Source: Rosa chinensis (Eukaryota; Streptophyta; Magnoliopsida; Rosales; Rosaceae). Taken from it: 64,000 nt of DNA. The translations under genes and the position numbers were made by a program. Location of the stretch: positions 18,960,001 through 19,024,000 of the forward strand of contig NC_037090.1 in assembly GCF_002994745.2 (NCBI RefSeq), read 5' to 3'. A model generated the notes under the pieces. The model was not told where the DNA came from and searched no databases. It saw only the letters and a list, made by a program, of their open reading frames with translations. Below are positions 11,616 through 45,861 of the stretch, in pieces. Within the stretch, counting starts at the first letter, position 1. Each line of letters opens with the position of its first letter.

Positions 11616-14600
11616 TTAGCTAAAGGTCTCCTTCAAAGTATAAGGGGTACAAGTAATATTATAGGGATTCAAGAAAGGTTGTCAAACCCACGAGGATTGG
11701 ATTCATTTCACTAACTAGGGTGTGAACCCTAAGGAGATCTAAAATATGCAAATGTACAATCACAAACCTAGAATCACAAGGAAATCTAGGCTCATGGGGA
11801 GTATGTGCAAGATAGAGCAGTGATTTGATTTTGGTTTATGGATATAGTTTTGAATTGAAAACAACTAAATGCTCAAATGTAAACTAAACTAGTGATCAAA
11901 TGGATAAAAGTTAGGATTTAGATTGTCTACTACTAAGCTCCCTTACGAGTATTGATGCATTTCAATATGAATGTTGCTAAATTAATTAACCAATTTCTCT
12001 GATTGCATCCCTCTTGGGTATGACAAGGCACATGCTCCTTTTGTGATATCAAGCAACCCTTCTCGGGTGTAGTACTTAATACTTAAGTCTTGCATTTCAA
12101 TCCGGTTAGGTATCTAGTGCATTACCTTAAGTGCATAAAGTTTGGAGATGAAGAAATCATGCAAACCAACCAAGCTTATCTCTAAGTGATTGTAATTCAC
12201 AACCCCTACATGCACATCTAGTATGCTTTCATACTTTAACATTCAAAGGTTACCAAGCTCTAAACTATATACCATGACATGGCAAATACACATACTCAAA
12301 GTGGTAAAGTTTAAGCATATGTATTCATTTCTTGAACTAGCATGTAGGCATGTTAAAGAAAATTGCATTACATCATATTATCGCATCAATTTAGGGGTCA
12401 TCATTTGGCCCGCGGGCCCAAAAGCATGGACGGACTCCCGGCCCAATGGGCAAAAGCCCCGCCAGGCCCGTAGCAAAGCCTATCTCAGCCTTGCCCATCG
12501 GGCACGAGGCAGGGCTAGGGCGGAGGGTTTAAAGCCCAGGCCCAACCCATTATATGCCCATTAAAGCCCGCCTGGCCCGGCCTTATAAGCCCAGCCTGAA
12601 AGCCCATTCAATTCTAGTATTAATATTTTTTTATGTAGTTATATTGAACTAATTATTGCATTAGGCCATATTTTCCTTTAATTTTGTATTATATTTTGTT
12701 CAATCATTAATATATATATATATATATCATAATATTTTCATAACTTTTTGTATTTTTTTTTAACAAAAGAACATTACATATTAATATAATTGGCTTGGCC
12801 CTACCCACCCAAAAAGTAAGGCCCTAGGCCTTGATTTTTAAGAGAAGCCCGGCCCTGCCCGGCCTAAAAAATTAAAAAAAATATGTTATGGCCTGGCCCG
12901 AGCCCATTAATTTTGGGCAGGGCCTACCCATTGACGACCCCTACATCAATCTTACAAGATTGGCTGGGCTTTCAACCCTAGCGCCAACAAAGTAATTACT
13001 CATTTATAATCATAAAAATTAGCTTCAAATCTATAATATACATCAAGGTAAATTAAAGAGTGCTGATACCCAAAAAATCACAAGACATGTCGCTCGCACA
13101 TTTCAACTTAAAAAAGGAAACACACATACGAACCACATTCGGAAAGATAAAGAGTTGCATATTGAACCAACATGCCACGCATGTGGACCCAAGCCACAAT
13201 TACACTCTTGGGGCTTACAGAAGTGGGTATGGTGTGGAGGTAACGGAAACATATAATGCCCATTTTCGATTTAAAGTTGTTGGTGATTTTGGTCTTGGGC
13301 CCAAAATCCAAGCCCAATAGTTTTAAACCGAAAATGGAAGTGAACAAGAGAATTGGACAATTTTAGGAAAAGCCCAAAACCACTACCAATACTAGTTCGA
13401 TCTTTTTCTTCCTTTTCTCACCCTTGTTCCAATAACCAGTCTCTTTCTCTTTATCATAATAGCAGAAGCAAAGCATGATCCCTGAATTTAGGGATTCTAC
13501 TTTCCGTTTTGGTTAAGAAGGAAACTTGACTACCATAAAGAAGCATGTCTTCCTCTACCTAAACTCATCCCCCAAATCCCTATTCAATCTTCTGATTTGT
13601 TTGTGTGTCTTGCACTATCGCAGCCTTAATCCACTGCAGCAAGCAACGTTCAACACCAAAGCCTCGGTACCAACAATTGTGATTATTATCAACTAAGCTG
13701 TTCCTTTCTTGAATTTAGGAAGGAACCCCTTTGCACCCAAAAAAAGGTAATTTCCTTTTACCCAAAAACTAACATCTTCCAATGGAACGTACAAAAAGAG
13801 GAACTCTCACAATAAACAGGGGGGAGCACAAATCGAGCAAAAGCCCAGAAAGTTGAGAAGCACCTATAGCAGTCATGCCTTCAAGCTTTCAAGCATAAAC
13901 CCAGTCCTCAGCTACCCTCCCAAAAACCTCATTCAAACCCATCTCCCAGAAATCCCAAATCCAAAAACTATCCAATTCTCTCACCGCAGTGTGTTTCTAG
14001 CTCCTACACCACGCTTCACTCTGCAAGCTCTGTTCATTATCTGAATCACACACAAAAATCCCCCCATAATCAATTATTGGGTTGATTTTGGCCTAGTCAA
14101 TGCTTAATCCAAAAAGAACCCTCACAAAGAGTTAAAGGAAATAATAAACTAGTTGAAGCTTGATAAATTGATGGCTAACTCCTTCTTGTCCTCCTTGATT
14201 GCCCTTAGACCCTCCTTGATGGTGGAATTAATGGATTATGAACTTATTGATGGCGATGATGAATGGAATGATGATGAAGGTATGATGCTTCTTTGGCTAA
14301 TTTTGAGTGGTAGTGATTGAGTTTATGGTGGTGGAAGATGGTAGCTGTGGTGGTGATGATAGAGTAGATGGAGTAGTAAGGGGAGTATGGGTATTATGGG
14401 TTTGATTTTGGGAGATGAAGATGTAGGTTTTGTGGTGGAGATGGAGATAGAAATTAAGGAGACGTAATGGGGTGGTATGGGTAATTGACTTGCTTGTAGG
14501 GGATGTGATGCTTAAATAGATGGAGACAGAGGTGTGAAATCATCACTAGAAGCAAAATGGAGCAGTTACAGCCTTGTAAGAAGCATGGAGAAAGAGTGTT

Positions 14601-19891: not shown

Positions 19892-22800
19892 CTAGCGTCT
19901 TCTTGCTGCCGTTTCTCTCTGCGCATTGAAGTAAACGGCAGCAACAGGAAGACCGAGGTCGTTTTCGGCTGCGAAGCTTCGGGTGTTGAAGTGATCCCTT
20001 GAAGAAGGTGGGTTCACCGACTGCCTTCGTTTCTGCTTGAAAAGAACAAACACAAACCTGTGGATTCCTATGTTTGGCCTTGGCATCTCGTAGCTCACCA
20101 TCTCTCTTCCTGTTAATGAAGTATATAATTCATTCAAGTTAAGACCAGAACGATGAACAATATTAGTGCTGATCATCACTAGCCGTATAACTGGTAGCTG
20201 AACTAGTGAATTAACCTACCAAATGTAACATCTGTGGTGCCTGGAATGTCTGTCACAATCCTGTATAGTCCAATTTCAAGGCAAAAATGTTAGCTCCTAG
20301 CTTGGTATGTATGTACTCCATAATTATTGTTTGCTAGCTTTTCTAATTCAGAGATTATGCCATAATATGTACTTCCTACTTGCTTTTAGAATTGGTAGTC
20401 TATGACAAAAAAGTTGATGTAGGATGTGCAAAAGGAATCGATAGGGTGGCAATATGAAAATACTAGATGGAACCAGTGTTGATAAAATACTTTTTCTCAA
20501 GAGTTTAATCAAAGAAAGTATGATACATGACACGAAGATTTGCTAACGCAGTGTAAACCTCTCCACTGAGGAAACTTCACTGCGTGGCTTTTAACGTAGC
20601 CAACACGAAAAATCAATCCAATATTAAACACTAGAGTTTACAGAATACAAGTAGTGTTGTTCACAACAAACACCTTTTCTTAGCAACAAATGCTAACTTG
20701 TTTTACAACCATTCTAACTCTAGATTCAACATTCCAGGCAATCAATCTTCAGCCTTCCTTTCACTCAATTGAATCACTGATCTTGAGAGTGAATGTAAAA
20801 GATTATGCAAAGTAATACATGAAACAATTAAAGAGGGTTTTTCGAAAACGATTTGAACAAAACAAGAAGTTCAAAGAGAAACCAGTTTCAGCCGTCAAAA
20901 ACCCTACACAAAACTTTAGTTTTGAAACCTTTTTATAAGGGAGAAAAACTCCCCCTCAATCAAATCTTTTCTTGATAATTGATTAAGATAAATATAGAAA
21001 GATTTAAAACAGTTTTTGAATGTGCAATCGATACTTTCCTAACAAGGTCTCAAATTGATATGCATGTTAAAAACCATTTTAATGCATAAGGGATTATTGA
21101 CTTAATACAACCGATATGCATATCAATTTAGATTTATACCAACCAATATGGAATGAATACACATTAAACTCAAGATCAGTGACTCGATTTGACTTGATCT
21201 TGTCTTCAAGAACCGATCTTGTGATCTTTCTCTTTGCTTCCTTGAAGCTCCGGTTTCCTCGTCGTAGTGGGAAATCATATGTTGAATGGTAATAGGCCAA
21301 TGTACTTACAATCTCCCCCTTTGGGCATTCCCATTCAACGCATGATTTTTCATCTTTTGTCCTGCAAGTTAGGTTTCACAGATAAACACTAATCACTAAA
21401 CAAAGGGTGCTACTTGGAGTAAGGAATCAGTTTCCATCCTTTTCCGGATCCAAGTAGCCAAAATACGATTACTTAAGAATAATAATAGCAAGCATCCTAA
21501 GAGTATCTGTGCTTATGCACTTACACACCAAAAAAAATTAAAAATGCAGAAACAGAAATAAAGTAAGAAAAATCAAGTTACTTCTCCCCCTTTGAATGGG
21601 AGGGCACGTCAAATTCCTCACAAAGCTTGGTGACGGTGTCCAGAAATTCCTCTTCATCCATGGAATCCGAGCTTTCCTCTGGTGCGACAGGCTCCTGCAT
21701 GGCATGGGATGGACCGGGAGCGTCAAACCCGGGAGGGTGGCGCTGCATGTTCCGGATCTCCTGTGTGAGAGTGGTCAGGGCATGACGAGTTCGAACCAGA
21801 AGAGAATGCATGTCGTCCATGTCCGTCGTGAGGCAAGCAATTCGCCAGTCAGCCACTAGAATCTGATCACGGAGACTTTCCAGAGAGACAGGAGGAGGAG
21901 GACTCCGACTGCGTGTACGATGCATGCCGGGATGGAGAATCCCGGCTCTGGCAGCTGCCTGACGACCTTCTTCTGGAGGAGGCAGGCGGCGATGTCCTCC
22001 AAGGCGAGTTGTTTGCTGTGAGCGAACCATGGTGAGAGAGCAGTGGGTGAAAGAACCTGCACACAGAGACAACCAAGAGTAAAATCCGAGGGAGACAAGA
22101 GAGGCTATATGTAGTGAACAGTTAGGTTTTAGGAAGACCAAGGAACACACCGATTGGGAGAACGGCTCAAATGGGGAGAGAAGTTATGACAATTTATTTT
22201 CCCTAGATATATGCATGCAGATAACTTCTCCCCCTCAACTTAGGCATAATCATTATGGAAATTAATTGTAGGCAGATTACCATCAAGGAAGGAAACGAAG
22301 AGCCAAAATATATTCAGAGAATCTGCAAGTATATCAGAGGATCGTTTCCTTTGCAAGTATCAAGGCAATGAATGCATAGGTCATATCGAGGAGAGAAAAT
22401 ATAGCGAAGTTTAATCACAGAGAGCACAGATCACTTAGTGGAAGGCACATAGTTCAGAGTACGAAGCATGATGTATTCTCTCAACAATAAGAATTGGTAC
22501 TCATAGTTAGACCTTAAGGAGTAAACTTGTGATAGAAGTGAATATAACCATGATGTGGGGCTTAGAAAAGATTTTAGTGTCATAGAGAAGGAGTGAAGTA
22601 AGAGAACTAAAGTAAAGCTCATGAAATCTCCTAAGAAGGAGCAGGAATCATTGTTCCCAAGCACATGTTTTAGTGGAGTCAAAGATCTCCTTTATTTAGT
22701 GACAAATATTACTCATGTAACAAGACTCTTCTCAGCAACTCCCAGAACAGATGTTCTTAGGGTACTAAGCATAACAAGGATGCTCCATGGAGAGAGTCTC

Positions 22801-25800
22801 GAGTAGTTGTCTGCATGATTTTATGTTATGTGCAAAGATCACTCACCAGCTCGTTTCTTGCAAACCTTAGAAAGTTCACCACAACTAAGGCCTGATTACT
22901 TTGAGAGATGGGATACAATTTTCCGTTCTCGTTTCTTACAAATCCTAGAAAGTTCACCACAACTAGGACCTGATTACTTTGAGAAGAGGGAATTAGTTAT
23001 GTGAGCAAAAGAAGCAGTTCGTCTACTTCACTGAATCTCATTTGACAGAAAACAAAAGGAAACATGCCACCACATAGGCTATAGGTGAAGATGCATAGTA
23101 GGGTTACTTGATTCAGTGACTAAACATGAGTACACAATTTCATTTGTCCAGAATAAGGCATGATAACATAAGATACATGACTGAAAATATGTACATTTCA
23201 CTAGTGACTGTGATCAAGGGATACTAGGATCACAATTTTCTCAATCAATAGTGGACAGTCATCATTTTGCCTTAATGCTTAGAACATATCCCTAGGGCAT
23301 TCCTCAACATTTCAAACCTAGCAGTGTCAAGAGGCTTAGTGAACAGATCAGCAAGTTGATTTTCAGTGGGCACAAAGCTTAACTCAAGTATGTTTTGTTC
23401 AACCAAATCCCTAATAAAGTGATATCGGAGATCAATGTGCTTTGTTCGAGAGTGTTGAACAGGATTCTTAGTGATGTTAATAGCACTAGTGTTGTCACAG
23501 AAAATAGACAACTTACCTTGAGATATGCCATAATCATGAAGCATTTGCTTCATCCAAAGTATTTGTGTGCAGCAACTTCCAGCGGCAACATATTCAGCTT
23601 CTGCAGTAGACAAGGATATGCAGTTTTGTTTCTTACTATGCCAGGCAACCAGATTGTTGCCAATGAAAAAACATCCCCCTGAAGTGCTTTTCCGATCCTT
23701 TAAATTTCCTCCCCAGTCAGCATCAGAGTATCCTGCAATTTCTACATTAGTGTCGAAGGTATAGAAAAGGCCACAATTAACTGTACCTGCCACATAGCGG
23801 ATTATTCTTTTGACAGCGTCCAGGTGAGATTCTTTGGGGTTTGCTTGAAATCGAGCACACACACCCACACTGTAAGAGATGTCAGGTCTGCTGGCAGTGA
23901 GATAGAGCAAACTCCCGATCATACTTCGATAGAGAGTCGGATCAACTGATTTTCCTTCATGATCTTCGCTTAACTTAGTAGTTGTACTCATGGGATTGGT
24001 CACTGTCTTCTTGGAAGCAAGACCGAATTTCTTGATCAGGTTCTCAGCGTATTTTGATTGAGAGAGAAACAAACCTGTGTCTATCTGCTTTACTTGCAGT
24101 CCAAGAAAATACGTTAGTTCACCACACATGCTCATTTCAAATTCACTTTCCATGACAGATTGAAATTCTTTGACAAGGTATTTAGAAGTGGAACCAAATA
24201 CAATATCATCAACATACACTTGGGCAATGACAATGTCATTTTTGGTTCGTTTCACAAACAATGTTTTATCTATGGATCCTCTAGCATACCCTTTTCCCAC
24301 AAGATGAGTGGATAGTCTCTCATACCAGGCTCGAGGAGCCTGCTTTAGCCCATACAGGGCTTTCTTGAGCCGGTAGACATGATCTAGGTTGTGTGGATCT
24401 TGGAAACCTGGAGGCTGCTCTACATAAACTTCCTCCTGAAGAAATCCATTCAGAAAGGCAGTTTTGACATCCATTTGAAACAATTTGAACCGGAGATGAC
24501 AAGCAATGGATAGAAGTAATCTAACAGATTCCAACCTAGCTACAGGAGCAAAAGTCTCGTCAAAGTCAAGTCCTTCGACCTGTGAATATCCCTGAGCAAC
24601 TAGTCTGGCTTTATTCCTAATCACGTTTCCTTTTTCATCGCTTTTATTTCTGAAAATCCACTTAGTTCCTATAACATTGCACTTACTAGGCCTTGGTACT
24701 AAGTACCATACATCATTCCTAGTAAACTGATTCAGTTCATCTTGCATGGCGCTAATCCAGTTATCATCCAACAAGGCTGCCTTAATATTTTTTGGTTCAA
24801 TAATGGACACAAAACCAAAATGAGATATAATGTTCATGCTTACCAAATTTTCGGTAATGAAACACAGTAATACATTTTCTTCACTTACCTCAGAGGGACT
24901 TACCTGAACTGCAGCCTTTCTCCTTGTCATCGGACCATCTGTTAGATTGCCGATGATATCTTGAGTGGAGTGATCTTTTTGAACTTGCTTGAACCCTCTT
25001 CTTTGGGTGGGAGCTGGTTCAAAAATGTTGTCATGGATTTCCTCTTCCTCTTCCTCAGATGATGTTTCAGTATTCTGTGAAGGTGTGACCGAGAAGGGTG
25101 AGGTATCTGCAAATGTTACTTCCTGTTTCACACATTGATCATCAATAGAAACATTAATGGATTCCATAACAACACGAGTTCTTTTATTGTAAACCCTATA
25201 TGCTCTGCTGTTCAGAGAATACCCCAAGAACACACCATCATCACTTCTAGCATCAAACTTACCAAGGTGTTCTCTATCTCGTAGAATGTAACAAGGACTG
25301 CCAAAAACATGAAAGTGTTTAACATTTGGCTTCTTACCTTTCCACAGCTCGTAAGCAGTTTGATCATTTCCTGGTCTAAGGAATACTCTATTTATTGTGT
25401 AGCAAGCAGTGCTGATCGCCTCAGCCCAAAAGTTTTTGCTTAAACCTGCAGCGTGTAGTAATACTCGAGCCATGTCTAGCAGTACCCTATTTTTCCTTTC
25501 CACTATCCCATTTTGTTGAGGGGTTATTGGAGCTGAGAACTCATGTGACACACCAAGCTCATGACAGTAGTTAGAAAAAGAGGCATTTTTAAATTCAGTT
25601 CCATTATCTGATCTTATTCTCACTAAACAGTTATTAGATGATTGTTTCTCAATGATTAATTTTTGACTCAAGTTCTTAAAGGACTCAAACGTTTCAGTTT
25701 TGTCTTTCAAGAAGTTTACCCAGGTGTATCTTGAGAAATCATCTACAACTACTAGTATGTAGCTCTTACCTCCAAGACTTTCAGATTGAGCTGGTCCCAT

Positions 25801-28800
25801 GAGATCCATGTGTAATAGTTCCAATACTTGTGAGGTTGTCGCAGAATTTACCATTCTGTGAGGTGCCTTAGTTTGCTTTCCAACCTTGCAGTCTCCACAC
25901 ATCTTGTCAGTTTTACCTTTTAAATTTGGCAAGCCTCGGACACATTGTTTGGAAGATAATTTCAGCAAGTCCTGATAGTTGATATGTCCCATCTTTCTGT
26001 GCCAAAGTTCAAAGGTTTCCTCTGTGGATTTAACAGACAAACAAGACTGCAAACTAGAAGATTCATTTGCTTGAATATGATAACAGTTATCAACAGATCT
26101 CATACCTCCCATGATACCTTCACCTTTCTGATTTAGGACCAAACATCTCTGTTTGTTAAACCACACATCTTCATAGTCATCAGCCAAATGGCTGACGCTA
26201 ATCAGATTTGCAGTTAATCCTTCAACAAATAACACATTTTTAAGGTTAGGTATACCTGGAGTGTTTACTGTACCTCGAGCTAGAATGTTAGCTTTCCTCC
26301 CATCTCCAAACGTGACTGATCCAGAGGTATTTTCATCCTCAAATGAAGTAAACCAGGTTTTGTCTCCAGTCATGTGTCTAGAACAACCACTGTCAACATA
26401 CCAAAAATCTCGTCGTTTGTCAGCAAATGCAGTTAAAGCTACCAAACAAGTTGCCTCAATGTGAGAGCGTTGATGAATTTTGCTAGCACAAACAAAAAGA
26501 CATGTATCATCAGTTTCACCAACAGGGGACCAATGATTTTTGCTTTTAATTTTTCTGGTCCAGACATCTTTTCTTCTTTCAGTTTGAGGATTCTTTTGAG
26601 AAACAATTTCAGTTAATTTGTTAATGAGTTCCTTTTGTTCTTTAAGCTCAACCTGTAAGGTTTCAACAGTACATTTTTCTTGAGAAAATTGTAAGTTTAA
26701 AAACCGTTCATTACATCTAGGTCTGATATGGCCAATCTTACCACAGTGATGACAAGTAGGAACAAAGGTTCTAGGGTTTGCGTACCTGTGTTGACCAGTG
26801 GGGGATTCTTGGTCAAGTTTTACCTGATGATGTTGGTTTGAATTACCTTCCCTTACACTTTTGACATGATCATCAAGGGAGACATCTATCTGCTCTACAG
26901 ATGGTTTTGAGGCACGTACGAATTTGGTGCTTTTGGAATCTTCTCCAGTGTATCCTAGCCCACATGTATCATGAGGAGCTTTTCCTGATCCAAGTAACTT
27001 GGACATGGAAGTGGAGCTGATATCAAACTTCATGAATCTTTCTTGAGTTAATTTTAACTCATGTTGTAGAGACTCATTTTTCGCTAACAGTTCCAAGTTC
27101 AGGGCTCTTTGTCCTTTAACATCCAGTTCTAGAAGTTTGATCTTGTTGAGATACTCATTCTTTTCAGTCTTCCACGTCAGTATCTTTTGGTCACCTTGTA
27201 GATCTGCCGATTCACTCACGAGTTTGCTTTTCTCCAGTTTCCATGCAGATTGTGAGGATTCGAATAGTTTCTCCACCTTTTCTTTTTCAGTCCTCAGGAA
27301 ATCTACTTCTTTTTCCAAGCTCAAGTTTCTAATCAGAGTGGCCTTTGAAGCTTTGTAGAGTTGTTTGCAGCGAACATTTGTTTCATCATCATCAGAGAAA
27401 TACTCATCACTTTCAGAATCAGGCAACAATGATGAGACAAGAGCCACATTTTCAATTTCTTGAGATTCATCATCACTCCAAGTTGAAAGGAGTGACTTGT
27501 TGTTGCTGTTTCCAAGCTTCCTATTTCCACAGTCAGTAGAAATGTGACCGAAACCACCACATTCATAGCATTTTGGTTTCCCTGAGTGATTTCCTTTGAA
27601 GTTTCCTCTTCCATTCTTACTATTGTAGTCACTGTTGTTACCACTGCCAATATAGTTATTCCTTCTGGGAGCATTCGTGTTTTTAGAGGAGTTCTTGCTT
27701 TTGAGAAATTTTTTGAATTCCTTCGTCAGTAGAGCAAGATCTAGTGATCCTTCTTCCTCTTCAATTTCTTTCACTGCTTTGAAGGCTACGCCCTTGTTTT
27801 TCTTCTCAGGTTTTAACATCATCTCATAGGTTTTCAAATTTCCGATGAGCTCATCAAGTGGATAATCATCTATATCAAAAGAGTCCTCTATGCTCGTAAC
27901 CTTTGAGTGAAATTTTTCCGGCAGAGCCCTGAGTATCTTTTTGACTATTTTATCTTCATCAAAAGGTGCTCCTAGACTGCGACACTGACCGGAGATTTTA
28001 AGAATTCTACCATGGAAGTCATCCACGGTTTCATCATCTGCCATAGTCATGGTTTCGAATTCAAAAATCAGTGCTTGCAGTTTCTGTGCACGTACCTTTT
28101 TATTTCCTTCGTATGTAATCTGTAGGAGATCCCATGCCTGCTTGGCAGTCTCACAATGACTTATCCTCAGTTTTTCCCGCTCCGATAGGGCTGTGAAGAT
28201 GCTGTTCTTCGCTTTGAAATCTGCTTGCAAGTTACGAACTTCTTCCTCAGTCCAGTCCTTCCTTGGTTTGGGAGTGGTAGTGGAAGCGCCTTCTTCTTTT
28301 GCTTTTGTCATAGGTACACTCCAGCCATTTTCTACGATGTTCCACACGTGTTCATCTTGAGCATAGAGGTATGATTTCATGTAAATCTTCCATTGAGTGT
28401 ATTTTTCACATCCACCTTCGAACCAGGGAGGACTATTTATAGATCCCCCAGTAGCCCTATCACGTGAATGTTCCATCTTTCCTGGGATCTCTAGAAGGTT
28501 CTAGAACCCGCTCTGATGCCAATTGAAAATACTAGATGGAACCAGTGTTGATAAAATACTTTTTCTCAAGAGTTTAATCAAAGAAAGTATGATACATGAC
28601 ACGAAGATTTGCTAACGCAGTGTAAACCTCTCCACTGAGGAAACTTCACTGCGTGGCTTTTAACGTAGCCAACACGAAAAATCAATCCAATATTAAACAC
28701 TAGAGTTTACAGAATACAAGTAGTGTTGTTCACAACAAACACCTTTTCTTAGCAACAAATGCTAACTTGTTTTACAACCATTCTAACTCTAGATTCAACA

Positions 28801-29895
28801 TTCCAGGCAATCAATCTTCAGCCTTCCTTTCACTCAATTGAATCACTGATCTTGAGAGTGAATGTAAAAGATTATGCAAAGTAATACATGAAACAATTAA
28901 AGAGGGTTTTTCGAAAACGATTTGAACAAAACAAGAAGTTCAAAGAGAAACCAGTTTCAGCCGTCAAAAACCCTACACAAAACTTTAGTTTTGAAACCTT
29001 TTTATAAGGGAGAAAAACTCCCCCTCAATCAAATCTTTTCTTGATAATTGATTAAGATAAATATAGAAAGATTTAAAACAGTTTTTGAATGTGCAATCGA
29101 TACTTTCCTAACAAGGTCTCAAATTGATATGCATGTTAAAAACCATTTTAATGCATAAGGGATTATTGACTTAATACAACCGATATGCATATCAATTTAG
29201 ATTTATACCAACCAATATGGAATGAATACACATTAAACTCAAGATCAGTGACTCGATTTGACTTGATCTTGTCTTCAAGAACCGATCTTGTGATCTTTCT
29301 CTTTGCTTCCTTGAAGCTCCGGTTTCCTCGTCGTAGTGGGAAATCATATGTTGAATGGTAATAGGCCAATGTACTTACACAATAGCCACACCCTATGCCA
29401 TAATATGTACTCTTTACTTGCTTTTATTTCTCTGACAATAGTCTGAATTTAATTAACTGAATGTTTATTGTCTTTGTGTTTTCGTTTCTAGGTTTGATAG
29501 TAGAGAATATATACTGTAAGTTATACCAGTGCAGGTGCTCCTTCAAATAAGGATCACTAGGGCCAGGAACATCTGGGTCTGTCATCACCTGTGAATCAAA
29601 ATCAATTAACTTAGCGATTTCGTAGATCTGATAAAACACAATCGGCGAACAATGGAGCCCAGAAAAAAAAAAAAAAAAAAAACGATGTGCACCGTACCAG
29701 AGTGAAGAATGATCTCATGTCGCCTCCTTGAATCTCAACTCTAGGTTTGGCGGTGACTGCAGATGGGAAGAGCTCATGTCCATTGAAGACGAGTTTGGTG
29801 CTGTAAGTGACAATCATTTTAGTAGTTGGGGTAAAGTAATCAAGAACATCTCCTATGACTCTTCCAACAACTAAAGGTTCCGACATTCTTGCCAT
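19892..29895 (-). CDS. KSN: TFL1/CEN-type floral repressor with a copia element in intron 2 (rose KSN)
   Basis: PEBP-family protein that represses flowering, by analogy with TFL1 as a cofactor of FD-type bZIPs at the shoot apex. Four exons: 29895-29698 (198 bp), 29588-29527 (62), 20260-20220 (41) and 20109-19892 (218), the standard TFL1/FT exon sizes, all GT-AG. The product is 172 residues. His84 in KEHLHW occupies the position that is His in TFL1 and Tyr in FT. The external loop ([17 protein letters not shown], about 125-141, with Asp139) is TFL1-like, not FT-like, so a repressor is expected. The C-terminus [11 protein letters not shown] is typical. Intron 2 (29526-20261) holds a complete 8.9-kb copia retrotransposon in the same orientation; without it the intron would be about 340 bp. 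All coding exons are intact. In roses this insertion is known to go with loss of full-length KSN transcript and continuous flowering. Confidence 0.96.
20261..20449 (-). other. KSN intron 2, portion between the retrotransposon and exon 3
   Basis: Host intron sequence. It contains TATGCCATAATATGTACT (20356-20373) followed by a second short match ACTTGCTTTTA. The same two strings recur on the other side of the retrotransposon at 29394-29426, so the intron already held, or acquired, a short duplication distinct from the 5-bp target duplication. Confidence 0.7.
20455..21310 (-). repeat. 3' LTR of the KSN copia element
   Basis: 856 bp, minus-strand ends TGTAAGTACATTGG to CTAGTATTTTCA. By eye it has no difference from the copy at 28524-29379. 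A TATA-like TTATAAAAAGG occurs on the minus strand near 20928-20938. Confidence 0.95.
21311..21322 (-). promoter_or_regulatory. polypurine tract of the KSN copia element
   Basis: AAAGGGGGAGAT on the minus strand directly abuts the 3' LTR start and would prime plus-strand DNA synthesis. Related tracts lie at 21581-21593 (AAAGGGGGAGAAG) and 22225-22238 (TTGAGGGGGAGAAG). Confidence 0.8.
21578..22030 (-). CDS. extra reading frame downstream of pol in the KSN copia element
   Basis: About 150 residues from the ATG at 22030 ([20 protein letters not shown]); the frame is open up to 22150, which would add 40 hydrophobic residues in front. The middle section (about 55-100, [20 protein letters not shown] and on) looks helical and coiled-coil-forming, and the C-terminus is acidic ([12 protein letters not shown]). 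It sits between pol and the 3' LTR, where some Sireviruses carry an extra or envelope-like ORF. No retroviral envelope feature is visible in the 150-residue form, and I do not recognise a family. The last codons and stop are formed by one of the polypurine tracts. It may be a real element gene or a chance frame; length and lack of stops in the young element favour the former modestly. Confidence 0.5.
   Translation of the reverse strand: MVRSQQTTRLGGHRRLPPPEEGRQAAARAGILHPGMHRTRSRSPPPPVSLESLRDQILVADWRIACLTTDMDDMHSLLVRTRHALTTLTQEIRNMQRHPPGFDAPGPSHAMQEPVAPEESSDSMDEEEFLDTVTKLCEEFDVPSHSKGEK
22151..23271 (-). other. non-coding spacer of the KSN copia element
   Basis: Between pol and the extra frame. 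It contains an approximately 70-bp tandem pair at about 22851-22990, each with AGAAAGTTCACCACAACTA, then CCTGATTACTTTGAGA. No other coding frame is supported. Confidence 0.6.
23272..28476 (-). CDS. copia gag-pol polyprotein, intact
   Basis: One uninterrupted 1734-residue frame. Gag: N-terminal UBN2-like region (about 1-230), zinc knuckle [14 protein letters not shown] (303-316), acidic segment and a long coiled coil (about 385-480), second knuckle [14 protein letters not shown] (575-588). Protease: [13 protein letters not shown] with Asp695. Integrase: zinc motif about 826-863, catalytic D891, D957 and E993. Reverse transcriptase about 1250-1480 with YVDD at 1421-1424. RNase H with D1585, E1628 and D1661, ending in the [10 protein letters not shown] segment typical of copia. 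All catalytic residues are present. It is transcribed in the same direction as KSN. The start is the first ATG, 44 bases past the 5' LTR and just after the primer-binding site. Confidence 0.96.
28508..28521 (-). promoter_or_regulatory. primer-binding site of the KSN copia element
   Basis: TGGCATCAGAGCGG on the minus strand, two bases past the 5' LTR end, resembles the initiator-methionine tRNA complement TGGTATCAGAGC used by most plant LTR elements (one mismatch in the first 12 bases). Confidence 0.8.
28524..29379 (-). repeat. 5' LTR of the KSN copia element
   Basis: 856 bp, identical by eye to 20455-21310, followed by the target duplication CAATA at 29380-29384. It lies 138 bp after exon 2 in the direction of KSN transcription, so any LTR polyadenylation signal would act early in intron 2. 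Confidence 0.95.
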
Positions 29896-35925: not shown

Positions 35926-36385
35926 TGATGTAGAACAGATGGCGGTCCAATTTCAAGAACAATTGGATCGTGCTAAAGGTGGAAACCGAAAAGTGACTAG
36001 TAGACGTAAAATGGGCCTTCGGAGTCCGATTGGGACGTACTTTAGCTTTCCGGAAAGGGAATCGCGCCAGAAATCAAACTCGTCGCTATGCCACGACGTG
36101 TGACCTTTTTCGGGCTTTCGGGATCGTTTAGGGCCTCAAAACTGCATTTTTCTATTTTACCCGTTTTTGGTTTTCTTAGTTAATTTTGGGTTGTTTTCGT
36201 TTTTATCCATGGGCCTTAGGGTTTCGTTGTTAGTCGCCCTAGGGTACTTTTCTCTTATTTATCAGAACGGATCTTTCATCTTTTATCAATTAAACTGAGA
36301 TTATTCTCTTTTATCTCTGGTGGACTCCAGAATCTTTTGCTTAGGTTTATTGTTGGTAAACCTAGTTATCAATCCGACTGCGTCA
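35926..36385 (+). repeat. 5' LTR of the CRM-like element
   Basis: 460 bp from TGATGTAGAACAG to CCGACTGCGTCA. Its first ~178 bases are the duplicate of the coding end that lies in the 3' LTR and remain open in the matching frame. Confidence 0.93.
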
Positions 36386-36387
36386 GG

Positions 36388-36399
36388 TGGTATCAAAGC
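36388..36399 (+). promoter_or_regulatory. primer-binding site of the CRM-like element
   Basis: TGGTATCAAAGC, two bases after the 5' LTR, matches the initiator-methionine tRNA complement with one change. Confidence 0.85.
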
Positions 36400-36435
36400 A
36401 GGTCTTCCCTGTCTCTTTTATTTGCCTTCGTAGCA

Positions 36436-39400
36436 ATGGGTGAAGTCACAAAATCGGATATCGAAGCTCTCACGGCAGCGTTTACCGCTGCCATCAACAC
36501 CATGAACAATCGGGTGGACGAGCAAATTGGAGAAATTCGTGGGTTGTTGGGAGAGAGAAACAACGATCGGAATAGAGGCAGGGAAGGAGGCCAGCGAGTT
36601 AGGGCTCCACGTAGAGAGGTTGTTGTTCATACTTCAGAATCTGAATCTGAAGAAGATATGGTACAATATGAACCACAAGGACAAGCTGACCAAGATTACA
36701 AAGTCAAGGCCGAAATTCTTTTCTTTTCAGGCAACTTGGGTGTAGAAGATTATCTAGATTGGCAGCTTCAGGTGGACAGGTTCTTTGAGATCATGGAAGT
36801 TCCTGAGCACAAGTAGGTTAAGCATGTTGCCTGGAGATTGAAGAGTACTGCTGCAGTTTGGTGGGATAAATTGCAGAACACTCGAAAGAAGCAGAGGAAG
36901 CAGGGTGTTAGAACATGGCGAAGAATGAAGCAGTTGATGATGGAGAGGTTCTTGCCAGATGATTATGAGCAGATTTTATACAGGCTGTACATAGAATGTG
37001 TCCAAGGAACTAGGACGGTGGGTGATTATACAGCTGAGTTCTTACGCTACTCGGAGCGTAATGAATTAGGGGAAACTGAAGGCCAGAAGGTGGCTCGCTA
37101 TATCAGTGGACTGAAGCCTTCCATTCAGGAGAGAATTGGGTTACAAACTGTTCATACTATGGCCGAAGTTACGAACCTAGCATTGAAGGCAGAGTTGATG
37201 GAGAAGCCTTCACGAGCTTCTTCCTTCCAAAGGTATAACTACCAAAGGAGTACAGATTTGGTTAACGCCTCAACTGCCAAGGGTACAACCACGCTGCAGA
37301 GAGCAGAAAACGCTTTTAAAACTTCTAATCCTCCTTTTAAAGGCGCGGGCAGTTCTAACAGTTCTAGTGGTGCTCAAAATAGGGCCCCGAATCAGAGGTT
37401 TAATAATCCCTATGTTAAACCTACAACAGATATCTGTTATCGATGCAACAAACCGGGGCATAGGTCTAATGTGTGTCCTGAGAGGAGACAAACTGCCCTT
37501 ATAGATGATTATGATGAGGATGAAGAAGAAGTTGGAAGAGATGGCGATTATGATGGGGCTGAGTTTGCGGAGGAGGAATCTCCTGAGAAGATTAATATTG
37601 TGTTGCAGCGGGTTCTACTATGTCCTAAAGAAGAAGGGCAGCGGCGCAATATTTTCAGGTCACTTTGTTCCATTAATAACAAAGTGTGCAATTTAATTGT
37701 GGATAATGGAAGCTGCGAAAATTTTGTGGCCAAGAAACTGGTGGAATATTTGTAGTTACCTACGCAACCTCATGAGACACCTTATTCCCTCGGGTGGGTC
37801 AAGAAAGGTCCACAAGTTCGAGTTGTTGAATCCTGCAAAGTACCGGTAACCATTGGTAAGCATTATAAAGATGAAGTTTTATGCGACATTATTGATATGG
37901 ATGCTTGTCATATTTTGTTTGGACGACCTTGGCAATTTGATGTGGATGTGACTTATAAAGGCAGGGACAATGTGATGTTGTTTATGTGGAATAACCATAA
38001 AATTGCTATGGCTCCTATGTGTCAATTTGAGAAATCTGGTGTGAAGAAAGTGGAGAGTTTCCTGACCTTGTCTAGCAGTGAACTTGAGATGGAGAGGGCC
38101 TTTAAAAAATCTGAGGTTTTCTGTCCAGTGGTGATAAAGGGGTTGTTGTCTGAAGAAAAGGAAGAAGTGGTGATCCCCAAGGAAGTGCAGAACATATTGG
38201 GGGCCTTTGAAGAGCTGATCTCGGATGAGTTGCCCAACGAGCTGCCACCTATGAGAGACATTCAACATCAGATTGATTTGGTGCCTGGAGCTAGCTTGCC
38301 CAATCTGCCATATTACCGAATGAGTCCCAAGGAGAATGAGATTTTGAGAGAGCAGATTGAAGACTTGTTGAAAAAGGGGTTCATTCGAGAAAGTATGAGT
38401 CCTTGTGCAGTTCCAGTCCTCCTTGTTCCTAAGAAGGGCAATCAATGGCGGATGTGTGTTGATAGCAGGGCCATTAATAAGATAACTGTGAAGTACAGGT
38501 TCCCTATTCCTCGTTTGGAAGACATGCTTGATGAGCTAGAGGGTTCCAAAGTGTTTACCAAGATAGACCTTCGAAGTGGATATCACCAGATTCGAATCAA
38601 GCCAGGAGATGAATGGAAGACAGCTTTTAAGAGCAAGGATGGCTTGTACGAGTGGATGGTTATGCCATTCGGATTGTCTAATGCACCCAACACTTTTATG
38701 AGGCTTATGAACCAGGTTCTTCACCCTTTTATAGGTTCCTTTGTAGTAGTGTATTTTGATGATATACTGATATATAGCAGAACCAAAGAAGAACATCTGG
38801 TGCACTTGAAGCAGGTTTTAGTAGCTTTACAGGAGAATAAACTGTACATCAACTTAAAGAAATGTACATTCTGCACCAGCAAGTTATTATTTCTGGGATT
38901 TGTGGTTGGAGAAGAAGGCATTCAGGTTGATGAAGAGAAGGTACGGGCTATAAGAGAATGACCAGCTCCAAAGACAGCCTCTGAGGTGCGGAGCTTTCAT
39001 GGCTTAGCTACCTTCTACAGGAGGTTTGTGAAGAATTTCAGTACCATTACTGCCCCTATTACTGAATGTTTAAAGAAATGCAAATTCCAGTGGGGAGAGG
39101 AGCAAGAGAAGAGTTTTGCCTTGATCAAAGAAAAGCTTTGTACTGCACCAGTTCTCGCTCTTCCTAATTTTGATAAGGTTTTTGAGGTTGAATGTGATGC
39201 TAGTGGTGTGGGAGTAGGTGCTGTGTTGTCACAGGAGAAGAAACCAGTAGCATTCTTTAGTGAAAAGCTGAGTGAAGCTCGCCAGAAGTGGAGTACTTAT
39301 GATCAAGAATTTTATGCAGTGTTCCGAGCATTGAGGCAATGGGAGCACTACCTGATTCAGAGAGAATTTGTACTGTTCACGGATCATCAAGCCTTGAAGT

Positions 39401-40977
39401 ACCTTAATAGTCAGAAAACTGTGAATAAGATGCATGCCAGGTGGGTGAGTTTTCTGCAGAAATTTCCTTTTGTGATTCAACATAAATCTGGTACTCTTAA
39501 TAGGGTGGCAGATGCTTTGAGTAGGAGGGCTTCCTTGCTGGTCACCTTAGCTCAGGAGATTGTGGAAGATACTGATTTTAAGGAGATCTGGACCAAATGC
39601 AGTAGCAATAATGCAGTTGCAGATTTTTATGTGAATGAAGGGTATTTATTCAAAGGCAATCGGTTATGTATCCCTAGTTCTTCATTACGAGAAAAACTGA
39701 TTAGAGATCTGCATGGAGGGGGTTTGAGTGGGCACTTGGGCCGAGACAAAACTATTGCTGGCCTTGAGGAGAGGTATTTCTGGCCACAGTTGAAGAAGGA
39801 CGTAGGAACTATCGTAAGAAAGTGCTACACCTGCCAGGTCTCTAAGGGTCAGTCTCAAAACACAGGTCTTTATCTACCTTTACCTGTTCCTGATGATATT
39901 TGGCAGGACCTTGCTATGGATTTTGTGTTGGGATTACCCCGTACCCAAAGGGGAGTGGATTCAGTGTTTGTGGTAGTTGACAGGTTCTCTAAGATGGTGC
40001 ATTTCATTGCATGTAAGAAGACTGCTGATGCTTCTAATATAGCTAAACTGTTCTTTAGAGAAGTGGTTCGTTTGCATGGAGTACCCAAGTCCATTACATC
40101 TGACAGAGACACCAAGTTCCTTAGCCATTTCTGGATTACCTTGTGGAGGATGTTTGGAACAACTTTGAACCGTAGCAGCACAGCTCATCCTCAAACTGAT
40201 GGACAGACAGAGGTTACTAATAGAACCTTGGGTAACATGGTTCGGAGTGTTTGTGGAGATAGGCCCAAACAATGGGATTATGCTTTACCACAGGTGGAGT
40301 TTGCTTATAACAGTGCTGTGCATAGTGCAACAGGGAAGTCCCCATTCTCCTTAGTTTATACTGCTATTCCTCGACATGTGGTGGATTTGGTCAAGCTTCC
40401 TAAAGTTCCTGGTGTTAGTGTTGCTGCTGAAAGCATGGCCAAGGATGTGCAGTTTGTTAGAGAATCAATTAAGGCCAAATTGGAACAAACTAATGCCAAG
40501 TATAAAGCTGCAGCTGACAAGCATCGGCGAGTTAAAGTGTTCCAGGAAGGTGATGACGTGATGGTGTTCCTGAGGAAGGAGAGATTCCCTGTTGGTACCT
40601 ATAACAAGTTGAAGCCCAGAAAATATGGTCCTTTTAAGGTGGTGAAGAAGATCAATGATAATGCTTATGTTGTTGCACTTCCAGATTCAATGGGCATTTC
40701 TAACACTTTCAATGTTGCTGATCTGCATGAGTTTCGTGAAGATGAGGCTCTTTATCCTGAAGAGAACTCGGGGTCGAGTTCTTCGGAGGTGGAGGAGACT
40801 GATGTAGAACAGATGGCGGTCCAATTTCAAGAACAATTGGATCGTGCTAAAGGTGGAAACCGAAAAGTGACTAGTAGACGTGAAATGGGCCTCCGGAGTC
40901 CTATTGGGACGTACTTTAGCTTTCCGAAAAGGGAATCGCGCCAGAAATCAAACTCATTGCTATGCTACGACGTGTGA
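36436..40977 (+). pseudogene. CRM-like gag-pol polyprotein with three premature stops
   Basis: About 1513 codons in one frame with no frameshift, broken by stops at 36814-36816 (TAG), 37753-37755 (TAG) and 38959-38961 (TGA). Gag about 36700-37240, zinc knuckle CYRCNKPGHRSNVC (37435-37476), protease IVDNGSC (about 37696-37716), reverse transcriptase with YFDD at about 38753-38764, RNase H from [14 protein letters not shown] (about 39188), integrase HHCC zinc region (about 39712-39850) and DDE core ([24 protein letters not shown]), then a GPF-type module ([11 protein letters not shown]). The last 59 codons lie within the 3' LTR. Each stop is one transition away from an expected Gln or Trp codon. 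As it stands it cannot make a full polyprotein. Confidence 0.92.
40785..40799 (+). promoter_or_regulatory. polypurine tract within the coding sequence
   Basis: GGAGGTGGAGGAGAC directly precedes the 3' LTR at 40800. It encodes part of the polyprotein (SEVEET) as well as serving as the likely plus-strand primer. Confidence 0.7.
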
Positions 40978-41259
40978 CCTTTTTCGGGCTTTCGGGATTG
41001 TTTAGGGCCTCAAAACTGCATTTTTCTATTTTACCCGTTTTTGGTTTTCTTAGTTAATTTTGGGTTGTTTTCGTTTTTATCCATGGGCCTTAGGGTTTCG
41101 TTGTTAGTTGCCCTAGGGTACTTTTCTCTTATTTATCAGAACGGATCTTTCATCTTTTATCAATTAAATTGAGATTATTCTCTTTTATCTCTGGTGGACT
41201 CCAGAATCTTTTGCTTAGGTTTATTGCTGGTAAATCTAGTTATCAATCCGACTGCGTCA
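40800..41259 (+). repeat. 3' LTR of the CRM-like element
   Basis: 460 bp, ends TGATGTAGAACAG to CCGACTGCGTCA, the stop codon of the polyprotein falling at 40975-40977 inside it. Confidence 0.93.
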
Positions 41260-41606
41260 CTTTATATAGGGATAGAATTACAACAGAAATATCAATTACA
41301 TTAATGATACTAAATGCTGATTGAGCTGTGATTATATTTCCTTGATTCCCTCCTCATCAGTTGCTTTGACGAAGACACATAGTGTGTTTTTCCTTTAACA
41401 CTCCCCCTTGTGTCAAGTCAAAGACGAAATGGTGCATGAGTTGTTGCCTCACTAAAAACCTTGCCAAGTAACAATAAAAACCATGTGGGACAAAAAATAC
41501 ACCTTGGTCGAAGGAAAAGAGCACAATGCATCTTCTATATTTGAGGATGACATGTGTGTGTTAGACTCCCCCTGATGTCTACACCTCCCTCTGATGCTTG
41601 CATTAA

Positions 41607-42760
41607 TCAAGGGAGTTTGGATAGTCTTCGCATTCCTATGTTTTTCACATGTTTCTCAAATGTGGCCTTGGGCAATGATTTGGTGAACAAATCTGCCATA
41701 TTCTCCTCAGACCTTACTTGATTCACTTGAATCTTGAGGAGAGCCTGTTGTTGCTGATTGTAGAACAACTTTGGCGATATGTGTTTTGTATTAACACCCT
41801 TGATATATCCTAACTTCATCTATTCGATGCAAGCTACATTATCTTCATAAATGCAAGTAGGCTCTTCAGTGGTAGAACTCAAACCACTAGTCCCTCGAAT
41901 ATGTGTAATGATAGTTCTTAACCATATACATTCACGAACCACCTCATGTAGAGCAATGATCTCTGAGTGGTTCGAGGAGGTAGCTACAAGGGTTTGCTTG
42001 GTTGATCTTCAAGATATAGCTGTGTTCCCAATGGTAAATACATAACCAGTTTGGGAACGACCTTTATGTGGGTCAGAGAGGTATCTAGCATCAGCAAAAC
42101 TCTACAGCGTTATCAAGCCTTATAGACTTGATAGGGTGATCAGGCTTGTGAGCCCTTAAACGTATAATTTGTGCTAGGAGTTTTGCAAATGCAACATTTC
42201 TTGTGGATAATAAAGTGACATATGACCAGCGTGTCGAAGCATCCACCAGAACCATGAAGTACTTGAATGGTCAGTATTCTGGATGGATAGGTCCACAGAT
42301 ATATCCTTGTATCCTTTGTAAGAATGGAATGTTTTGTTTTGTGTTTTTAGCATAGGAAGGTCTCGATCATGTTTTTGCTAAAGAGCAGGCTTTGTAAAAC
42401 GAGTGATGTGCCTTTGAAATAGTCTATGAGGCATAATGGGAGGGAGGTAGTGCTTCTGGTACTTCAGAAGGCAATGGCTGCATTTGAGCAGTACTAGGAC
42501 CGACACCTTGCAGTGTGACGGATTTTTCTCCCATTGTATTTTTCACTCGAAATAAGGGATGTCCATCTGAGTTCTTTAAAATATGGATCATCATGTCACG
42601 ACCGGGATGTCCTAAGCGGTCATGCCAAAGCCTGTATGAGTCAGTGTCCCACATTTCATTGTTGGTGACAACATAGGATTCAATGATCCAAATCGTAGTG
42701 AGGTACAGTCCACTAAATTGACTCATAAGTTTCTCTAAAATGTGTTTCCTTCCACATTTA
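41607..42760 (-). pseudogene. copia pol remnant: pre-integrase, partial integrase fused to RNase H
   Basis: Minus strand. The pre-integrase region (WHDRLGHPGRDMM) is at about 42635-42590. An integrase core start follows (QGYICGPIHP, then YFMVLVDASTRWSYV, then IRLDNAVEF) to about 42103. It then switches directly into the RNase H region (FADARYLSDPHKGRSQTGYV) and on to ADLFTKSLPKATFEKHV near 41690. The second half of integrase and all reverse transcriptase are gone, with the join in a short shared string around 42098-42106. Stops also interrupt the remainder. Confidence 0.75.
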
Positions 42761-43236
42761 TTAGAGGTAATATAAAGTCATTCAGTTCCATTCTCACAGT
42801 GTGTTTTTACATGATAATCGTTAGCACACATATCTTTGAAACTTTAACAAGGTTCAATTGAGCTCTTAGTGCATACAGAGCGTTTGTGACATTAAATAAA
42901 TCTCATATTCTTTAGAGTATTTCTATTTAGGTAGAATGATAATCTTTTCATTCAAATAATTTTTTTTTTCTAGATGTATTGCTTTATATCTTTATAGTGC
43001 TATTTCGAACCATGTAAATATGTGTAGTAAATAAAAGTCGAATAAATTCAGTGCTTCAAAGTAAAATTTGAAATTTCTTAATAAGCCAACGATAATCAAA
43101 TCAAGGTCTTGTTCAGAAATCTAATTCATCAAACCACTATTGAAATAAACTTTAAGACTAATCAATAGTCTAATTAAAAATGAGGCATTATGCCTTCACA
43201 ACTGTCTTTGAAAAATAAATAGATAAAGCAGATCAG

Positions 43237-44256
43237 TCAAAATCTAGTCCATTCATTGACCTTGTTGCCATTGAAGTCTGCAATTGTGAGGTTGACATCT
43301 CGGTCATGGCCTCCTTCTTCCATATAGTGAGCCTCTTGTTCTTTAGACTCCTTATACCTCTTGTTCTTTAGCTGCAGTGATGTTGTTTGCTTGACAGTTC
43401 TTTTACCAATGCCCAATGACTCCATACCTATAACATGGTTCATTGCCAACTCTTTCCTGTTTGACTGAAGGGTTCTTAGGTGACCTGTGCACCTTGTTTC
43501 CATGATCACTAGGCCAGCACCACCATCTCTGCGCCATACATTGAAAGGGCCTCGACTGCCCATACCACGACCCCCACGTCCCTTGCCACGTGGGTAGGGA
43601 TCAGTACTTCCAATCCCCTTTGCATTGGGGTTCTTTCCACCTTTCACTTTGCCATAATTAGCCTTGGGAATTTTCTTTGTCCTAATAGGTGTGGCGTTGT
43701 TGTTCAAAAGAACCTCATTATGCCTCTCAGCCACTTGCAGTAGGTTGATCAGCATATTGAAGGTTGTGATTCTTTTGTTATACTGGTTTGCTAGAATAAG
43801 TGGTGAAGTAGGAAAAGTGGAAAGAGTCTTCTAGATCATATCATTTTCTGTGAGTTCCTTTCTACAGAAATTGAGACGTGCCTTTAGGCGCAACATGACC
43901 TTGTTGAAGTCATTGACCCTTTTGTAGTCGAGCAAGCGGATTTCATTCCACTGAACGGTCAGTTCTGGGAGCAAGGTGTCATGAATGTTCCTAAAACGTC
44001 CCTTAAGGGCGTCCCATAGTTCTTTGGGTGTCTTCAACTGAAGGTACTCCCAGCGTAGACTAGGATCAATATGTCGCCTTAGAAACATTAAGGCATTTGC
44101 TTTCACCTTATTAGATGATTCATCATGTTTGGGGTCGGTAATGGTGGCAGTGTAGTCTTTTGCCACAAAGGCAGTTTCCACATCGGAAACCCAACAATGG
44201 TATTCAAGTCCTTCTGAGTCCAAGATGTCAAATTCAGGTTGATTTGGATCAGCCAT
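43237..44256 (-). pseudogene. copia gag remnant
   Basis: Two minus-strand frames: 44256-43831 starts MADPNQPEFDILDSEGLEYH and carries the copia gag core (LRWEYLQLKTPKELWDALKG); 43755-43237 carries the basic, Gly-rich C-terminal part with a degraded zinc knuckle. Both belong to the gene start of the deleted copia element; a stop and a shift near 43760-43830 separate them. Confidence 0.75.
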
Positions 44257-45196: not shown

Positions 45197-45232
<36 letters not shown>

Positions 45233-45667: not shown

Positions 45668-45861
45668 TGTAAAAGTAAAATTGAGATTGAAATTGGGCTG
45701 CTCATTTCATTTCATAGTCCCTTTATATAGGGATAGAATTACAACGGAAATATCAATTACATTAATGATACTAAATGCTGATTGAGATGTGATTGTAATT
45801 CTTTGATTCCCTCCTCGTCAGTTGCTTTGACGATGGCACATAATGTATTTTTCCTTTAACA
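45668..45861 (-). repeat. 5' LTR of the deleted copia element
   Basis: 194 bp, TGTAAAAG to CCTTTAACA on the plus strand; TATATAGGGA near 45725. Compared with the split left LTR it has about 13 extra bases (GGGCTGCTCATTT region). Confidence 0.85.

What the first reader, a model, noticed from the sequence alone, without database searches (positions are those of the whole stretch)
19892..29895. KSN/TFL1 floral repressor carrying a full copia element in intron 2: a recurrent-flowering rose allele
Seen: four intact TFL1-type exons with the typical 198/62/41/218 bp sizes, and an 8925-bp copia with CAATA target duplications inside intron 2. Known: in rose, KSN with a copia insertion in intron 2 is the recurrent-blooming allele. 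Inferred: this haplotype fails to make normal KSN transcript and the source is a continuous-flowering rose or hybrid.
Basis: partly seen in the sequence, partly recalled or inferred. Interest (0 to 1): 0.95.

Follow-up and report, generated by a model that had tools for sequence, protein, structure and literature searches.

The report
Known repeat-flowering allele of rose
This is the well-known rose flowering-repressor gene KSN interrupted by a jumping gene, the published cause of repeat blooming in China and modern roses, here in the reference genome of 'Old Blush'; it is correctly recognised but not new.

Summary
Confirmed and already published. KSN (a TFL1 homologue) lies on the minus strand with four intact exons (198/62/41/218 bp, 172 aa). 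Intron 2 holds an 8925-bp copia element at 20455-29379 with identical 856-bp LTRs and CAATA target duplications. The SNPs that could be placed match the published RoKSN-copia haplotype. No second KSN locus was found in the assembly.

Added here: the element lies in the same orientation as KSN, its 1734-aa gag-pol frame is open, and three Sirevirus hallmarks are met. A 150-aa extra ORF between pol and the 3' LTR gave 214 match pieces in this genome and dN/dS of 0.14-0.28 against 19 chosen copies.

Mechanism: loss of normal KSN transcript, from the literature. Premature termination in the sense LTR, plus an intron enlarged from 336 to 9266 bp, is my inference.

The parts
29698..29895 (-). KSN exon 1 (198 bp, starts ATG)
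   Evidence: donor GTACGG
29527..29588 (-). KSN exon 2 (62 bp)
   Evidence: acceptor CAG, donor GTATAA
20220..20260 (-). KSN exon 3 (41 bp)
   Evidence: acceptor CAG, donor GTAGGT
19892..20109 (-). KSN exon 4 (218 bp with stop)
   Evidence: acceptor CAG
20261..29526 (-). KSN intron 2, 9266 bp with the element, 336 bp when the flanks are joined
29380..29384 (.). target-site duplication CAATA
20450..20454 (.). target-site duplication CAATA
28524..29379 (-). 5' LTR of the copia element (856 bp)
20455..21310 (-). 3' LTR of the copia element (856 bp, identical)
28510..28518 (-). primer-binding site CATCAGAGC (8 of 9 to the Sirevirus 9-mer TATCAGAGC)
   Evidence: motif from PMC2829016 (passage)
23272..28476 (-). 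gag-pol open reading frame, 1734 aa: gag, zinc knuckle, beta-barrel, pre-integrase, integrase, reverse transcriptase
   Evidence: Pfam on three separate pieces
21578..22030 (-). additional 150-aa ORF between pol and 3' LTR, sense orientation
   Evidence: no Pfam match for the longer 190-aa frame
22228..22235 (-). internal polypurine octamer AGGGGGAG
21584..21591 (-). internal polypurine octamer AGGGGGAG, inside the last codons of the 150-aa ORF
21313..21320 (-). terminal polypurine tract AGGGGGAG followed by AT/TG

Best explanation
This is the RoKSN-copia allele of Rosa chinensis 'Old Blush'. A Sirevirus-type Ty1/copia retrotransposon inserted, in the sense orientation, into the short second intron of the TFL1-type floral repressor KSN, leaving every exon intact. 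Published: the allele yields little or no KSN transcript, so nothing re-represses flowering after spring and the plant blooms continuously. Inferred here (about 0.6): KSN transcripts that start normally run into a sense-oriented LTR that has its own promoter and, presumably, polyadenylation signals. Most end there or are not spliced over the 9.3-kb intron, giving at best exons 1-2 plus intron (a 119-aa open frame holding only residues 1-87 of KSN). Because a solo LTR is reported to be only hypomorphic, one LTR alone is leaky; intron length, the second LTR or silencing of the element must add to the block. The confidence below is for the identity and the published effect.
For: Coordinates equal the published ones: window start G000:C3:18960001 plus 19892-29895 gives 18,979,892-18,989,895 (PMC9527601 Table 4). 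Protein 99% to a Rosa sericea record (1 difference) and to R. chinensis var. spontanea KSN (2 differences); best solved relatives TFL1 and CEN. Intact exons, element, TSD. SNPs G181, A234, G292 and, with a 6-base shift, T1043, A1068, G1104 fit the copia haplotype (against PMC8012652). Same strand for gene and element. Read-through stop after 119 aa. Loss of accumulation and the hypomorphic RoKSN-LTR allele: PMC8012652.
Against: No transcript data could be examined, so the level at which expression fails is not shown. LTR signals are weak by consensus: no AATAAA in the LTR, only near-cognates. PMC8012652 reports that 96 of 117 copia/WT genotypes can rebloom, which a plain recessive null does not explain. 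Tensions in the SNP placing: the stated change at A1054G does not fit the codon I reach, so that site was not used; and position 292 falls in intron 1 by my placing, whereas the paper puts its non-exonic sites in intron 2. One contig length does not agree: a RchiOBHm_Chr3 protein is listed on a contig of 49,737,312, while C3 here is 49,724,142, so the held copy may be another version.
Confidence: 0.97

Rival explanations
1. The allele is silenced mainly by chromatin: DNA methylation and repressive marks spread from the element to the KSN promoter, and termination in the LTR matters little.
For: In R. rugosa 'Purple branch' the promoter of the normal KSN allele, paired with a copia allele, is hypermethylated, and silencing MET1, CMT3 or SUVR5 raises KSN (PMC7848002 abstract). 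The LTR is short of strong polyadenylation consensus.
Against: Sense orientation inside a short intron makes termination or splicing failure sufficient (inference). The methylation data concern the other allele.
Confidence: 0.25
2. The copia allele is not inert: its truncated exon 1-2 product or element-derived small RNAs reduce the other allele, giving the partial dominance seen in heterozygotes.
For: 96 of 117 copia/WT genotypes can rebloom, and paramutation was raised as one option by PMC8012652. Lowered KSN in heterozygous 'Purple branch' (PMC7848002). A 119-aa frame is open.
Against: Continuous flowering was described as a monogenic recessive trait (PMC8012652). Dose in polyploids, unscored null alleles and other loci are offered for the same data.
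Confidence: 0.07
3. Misassembly or a paralogue: the element was placed in KSN wrongly, or this is another TFL1/CEN gene.
For: The element family has many near-identical copies, a risk for assembly.
Against: Target duplication and identical LTRs at this site. PCR and Sanger work in the papers describes the same insertion. Other PEBP matches in the genome are at most 77% identical over pieces of 67 residues or more; one 25-residue piece is 84%.
Confidence: 0.01

Closest known systems
RoKSN-copia allele of Rosa chinensis 'Old Blush' (RchiOBHm_Chr3g0473011/Chr3g0473021)
   Same: Same genome position to the base, same intron, identical LTRs, same SNPs where placed
   Different: Nothing found; it is the same locus
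RoKSN-LTR allele of climbing sports
   Same: Remainder of the same element in the same intron, reported as a recombination product (PMC8012652)
   Different: Only a solo LTR remains there; here the element is complete
RoKSN-null allele, the other 'Old Blush' haplotype
   Same: Loss of KSN function, continuous flowering (PMC6786968, passage)
   Different: Gene deleted by a large rearrangement; here all exons are present
FvTFL1/FvKSN of continuous-flowering strawberry
   Same: Loss of the orthologous repressor gives continuous flowering (passages); Fragaria vesca protein 94% identical (P0006)
Sirevirus genus of Ty1/copia retrotransposons (SIRE lineage)
   Same: Several AGGGGGAG tracts in the linker, AT/TG attachment site, inverted repeat around the terminal tract
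   Different: Primer-binding 9-mer differs at one base; one octamer also lies in each LTR, where the paper finds it rare outside the linker; AT-rich LTR (GC 0.34) with CGG-CCG boxes not established; 150-aa extra ORF without a named relative outside Rosa chinensis

Membership tests
TFL1/CEN clade of PEBP proteins (KSN) | Best similarity to TFL1 and CEN rather than FT | tested here: met
   PDB search: TFL1 302.6 bits, CEN 289.5, Hd3a 226.8, FT 210.9
TFL1/CEN clade of PEBP proteins (KSN) | His at the position equivalent to TFL1 His88 (Tyr85 in FT; numbering recalled) | tested here: met
   H84 in the query; His in 118 of the 120 homologues listed (of 1424 found)
TFL1/CEN clade of PEBP proteins (KSN) | Four exons with intact splice sites | tested here: met
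   198/62/41/218 bp
RoKSN-copia allele | About 9-kb copia element in intron 2 with identical LTRs | tested here: met
   8925 bp, LTRs 0 differences in 856, TSD CAATA
RoKSN-copia allele | SNP haplotype of the copia allele (17 sites; G at 292 and T at 1043 most discriminating) | tested here: inconclusive
   6 of 7 positions named in the text were placed and fit (181, 234, 292, 1043, 1068, 1104), the exon 4 ones with a 6-base shift fixed by two codons. 1054 was not usable, the other 10 sites could not be placed because HQ174211 was not available, and 292 falls in intron 1 by my placing while the paper puts its intronic sites in intron 2
RoKSN-copia allele | No accumulation of normal KSN transcript | not testable with these tools
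   From papers only (PMC8012652, PMC7848002)
Rosa chinensis 'Old Blush' homozygous assembly | Published coordinate of KSN | tested here: met
Sirevirus (Ty1/copia) | Multiple AGGGGGAG octamers in the linker, terminal one followed by AT/TG | tested here: met
   Three in the linker, at 22228-22235, 21584-21591 and 21313-21320, the last followed by AT then TG (definition from passages of PMC2829016)
Sirevirus (Ty1/copia) | Inverted repeat around the terminal polypurine tract | tested here: met
   By eye: GTTGAATGG upstream of the tract and CCATTCAAC in the LTR; present also in some classic copia
Sirevirus (Ty1/copia) | PBS TATCAGAGC | tested here: inconclusive
   CATCAGAGC, 8 of 9
Sirevirus (Ty1/copia) | Repeated CGG-CCG motif boxes in the LTR | not tested
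   CACCGGACT and ACCGGACT, and their complements, absent from the element; LTR GC 0.34; no general search for other boxes
Sirevirus (Ty1/copia) | Reverse-transcriptase phylogeny | not tested
   No reference set at hand

The most novel reading that the evidence does not exclude
Two readings are not excluded. (a) The copia allele acts in trans, through a truncated KSN product ending in the sense LTR or through small RNAs, which would explain reblooming heterozygotes. (b) The element family carries a lineage-restricted third protein of about 150-165 aa that is kept by purifying selection and contributed to its recent spread in rose. The probability given is for (a) or a demonstrated function in (b) proving true and unpublished.
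Probability: 0.12. Interest if true: 0.45.

Novelty: already known. Interest (0 to 1): 0.13.

Why it matters
KSN-copia is the main published source of repeat flowering in modern roses, so locating it exactly and describing its element helps genotyping, and helps read transcripts of the allele. Nothing about its identity or effect is new. The small leads are the sense orientation with a specific predicted truncated transcript, the Sirevirus-like signals, and a conserved extra ORF; whether these are in print was not searched beyond.

Tried and rejected
Histone-tail mimicry by the extra ORF: in some copies the N-terminus reads VRTKQTTR, like the tail of histone H3 (recalled). Over the 69 copies fetched, RTKQT is present in 8 of 69; position 5 is K in 47 and Q in 22, position 6 is Q in 31 and I in 30. 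Rejected as a conserved feature.

Paralogue or misassembly: rejected because no other place in the assembly resembles KSN above 77% over pieces of 67 residues or more (16 matches, 3 of them KSN itself, from 20 candidates, all scored; one other 25-residue piece is 84%), and PCR and Sanger work in the papers describes the same insertion.

RNA families: 0 Rfam matches in the window at the gathering threshold. The Nat. Genet. 2018 'Old Blush' genome paper and the 2012 gibberellin/RoKSN paper were looked up and are not held. Iwata et al. 2012 was not looked up; I cite it only through other papers. A search for rosa, KSN, polyadenylation, LTR and intron together found 0 papers in the held library. 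So I cannot say whether the exon 1-2 transcript was ever reported.

The dN/dS sample: 20 copies chosen from the list because they cover the whole ORF or all but its last residue and show no stop; the KSN copy was added. This favours intact frames. A wider set of 69 fetched copies (those 20 included, the rest with and without stops) has 42 of 54 near-full ones without a stop. All 69 begin with ATG, but rows were chosen for matches that start at residue 1, so that is by selection. One search scored 150 of 1038 candidates and did not list all of its 214 matches; some copies appear as two pieces, so 214 is not a count of copies.

LTR dating: 14 of the 16 LTR pairs at 93% or more were compared; two pairs (C2:36694433 and C4:59984407) and one broken copy (C6:44.09 Mb) were dropped before the count, and the 82% group was not studied. 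40 of 557 first-look candidates had been scored. Three of the 14 pairs (L009, L011, L027) also differ by indels of 1, 3 and 2 bases, and three (L011, L019, L027) show no exact target duplication; for L011 and L027 the alignment stops short of an LTR end, so the test there is weak.
Full report
What is there. KSN is on the minus strand. Exons are 29698-29895, 29527-29588, 20220-20260 and 19892-20109 (198, 62, 41 and 218 bp), introns 109, 9266 and 110 bp. The joined CDS is 519 nt and encodes 172 aa with no internal stop. Intron 2 holds a copia element at 20455-29379, 8925 bp, with two 856-bp LTRs identical at every position, TG/CA ends and CAATA target duplications. With the flanks joined, intron 2 is 336 bp.

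Which genome. The window is C3:18960001-19024000 of a 515,083,735-bp assembly in 53 contigs. Window 19892-29895 is therefore C3:18,979,892-18,989,895. PMC9527601 Table 4 (passage seen) gives KSN at exactly 18,979,892-18,989,895 on Chr3 of the homozygous R. chinensis 'Old Blush' genome, genes Chr3g0473011 and Chr3g0473021. PMC8012652 (methods section read) names the same two genes as the RoKSN locus with the copia element inserted. One length disagrees: a RchiOBHm_Chr3 protein is listed on a contig of 49,737,312, while C3 here is 49,724,142, perhaps another version of the same assembly. The exact coordinates settle the source for me.

Which gene. The protein differs by one residue from a Rosa sericea record and by two from R. 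chinensis var. spontanea KSN. The nearest solved structures are TFL1 and CEN, well ahead of FT. The search of the whole assembly gave 16 matches from 20 candidates: three are the KSN exons; the other 13 are other PEBP places, 47-77% identical over pieces of 67 residues or more, and 84% and 74% over two short exon-2 pieces.

Which allele. Taking the ATG as position 87 of the published reference places Ser32 at G181A and Lys50 at A234C, as the paper's amino-acid changes require. The window reads G181, A234 and G292. In exon 4 a shift of 6 bases, fixed by the Ser and Ala codons of A1068T and G1104T, gives T1043, A1068 and G1104 (read by eye). G292 and T1043 are the states that PMC8012652 ties mainly to the copia allele at its two most discriminating sites. 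Two tensions: A1054G could not be matched to the stated residue and was left out, and position 292 falls in intron 1 by my placing, whereas the paper puts its five intronic sites in intron 2. The other ten sites could not be placed without the reference record.

The element. It lies on the same strand as KSN: gag-pol is an open 1734-aa frame at 23272-28476 minus, searched in three pieces. The Pfam matches are copia gag, zinc knuckle (19.9 bits, just below its cut-off of 20.8), beta-barrel, pre-integrase, integrase core, SH3-like and RVT_2. It has the Sirevirus polypurine octamer AGGGGGAG three times in the linker, the last followed by AT/TG, and an inverted repeat around it; one more octamer lies in each LTR, and the primer-binding 9-mer is 8 of 9. 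PMC6786968 (passage) counts 34 insertions, 11 full length, of this element in the other 'Old Blush' haplotype assembly. Here 14 LTR pairs were compared: 0 substitutions in 10 and 1 in 4, in all 4 in 11,978 aligned sites (three pairs also have small indels), with exact 5-bp target duplications in 11 of 14. At assumed (recalled) rates of 0.7-1.3e-8 per site per year, zero differences in the KSN pair bounds its age at about 135,000-250,000 years (95%), which agrees with 'recent' but cannot date it to cultivation.

Mechanism. Published: the insertion prevents normal KSN expression (PMC8012652 introduction; PMC7848002 introduction; PMC8773502 passage); a solo LTR at the site gives a hypomorphic allele (PMC8012652); overexpressing KSN kept continuous-flowering roses from blooming (PMC8773502 passage). 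Inferred: with gene and element in the same sense, KSN transcripts meet the 5' LTR first. That LTR has TATAAA at LTR positions 173 and 374, the second in a good TATA-box context by eye, and only near-cognate polyadenylation hexamers. Reading on from exon 2 gives a stop after 119 aa, of which residues 1-87 are KSN. The leaky solo-LTR allele argues that one LTR is not a complete block. Chromatin silencing is a real rival (PMC7848002 abstract).

Against a plain recessive null: PMC8012652 reports 96 of 117 copia/WT genotypes able to rebloom and lists dose, null alleles, other loci and paramutation as options (first part of the discussion).

Extra ORF. Between pol and the 3' LTR lies a sense ORF of 150 aa (21578-22030 minus). 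It has no Pfam match (the longer 190-aa frame was scanned). In this genome 214 match pieces were found, 150 of 1038 candidates being scored and not every match listed. Of 20 copies fetched for the test, one is identical to the KSN copy; against the other 19 dN/dS is 0.14-0.28, and over 206 of 210 pairs (those with dS above 0.05) the median is 0.23, with 10-90% limits 0.18-0.36. These 20 were picked as full-length and stop-free. Of 69 fetched copies, 42 of 54 near-full ones have no stop. Protein searches gave one hit with the single sequence, from R. chinensis (52 candidates), and four with the profile: two from R. chinensis and two unnamed, on contigs of 989 and 534 bases (only the best 7994 candidates scored). 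[quoted passage not shown]

Verdict. The finding is the textbook rose repeat-flowering allele, already mapped at this exact position.

Noticed in passing
21578-22030 (-), and 214 match pieces in G000: The copia family has a 150-165-aa additional ORF between pol and 3' LTR that looks to be under purifying selection (dN/dS 0.14-0.28 against 19 chosen copies), with no named relative outside Rosa chinensis in two protein searches.
   Followed up: partly
KSN codon 32, window 29800-29802 (-): The literature's 'new' RoKSN-A181 allele (Ser32Asn) carries the commoner residue: Asn in 92 of the 120 homologues listed, including strawberry, cherry and R. sericea records, Ser in 15. A181 is probably the ancestral state and Ser32 derived in some roses, which fits the paper's finding that the A181 protein is functional. 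No tree was made.
   Followed up: partly
20261-29526, intron 2: A 33-bp direct repeat (30 of 33 identical), 108 bp apart in the empty intron, flanks the insertion site; best of 300 shuffles scored 35 against 51. PMC7848002 reports a 44-bp insertion in the same intron of another allele.
   Followed up: partly
35926-41099 (+): A Ty3/gypsy element (gag, RT, RNase H, integrase, Tf2-type SH3) whose four consecutive stop-to-stop frames lie in one reading frame separated by stops; LTR stretches 97% alike over 300 nt.
   Followed up: partly
41256-45861 (-): Remnant copia: 145-nt direct repeats at both ends, 92% alike, and a GAG-pre-integrase piece at 42427-42777.
   Followed up: no
L029 (G000:C6:47583798-47584259): A PEBP copy, 66% identical to KSN residues 21-172, in one uninterrupted frame across the intron positions and with no match to the first 20 residues: looks like a processed copy or pseudogene.
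   Followed up: partly
11729-12390 and 54365-54963: Three inverted-repeat pairs (87-96%) 42 kb apart on either side of KSN; nature unknown.
   Followed up: no
3839-4789 (+); 60805-61338 (+): A Yip1-domain gene piece and a DDE_Tnp_4 transposase piece.
   Followed up: no
20455-21310 and 28524-29379: The LTR begins TGTAAGT, so each LTR offers a consensus-like splice donor in the sense of KSN; untested.
   Followed up: no
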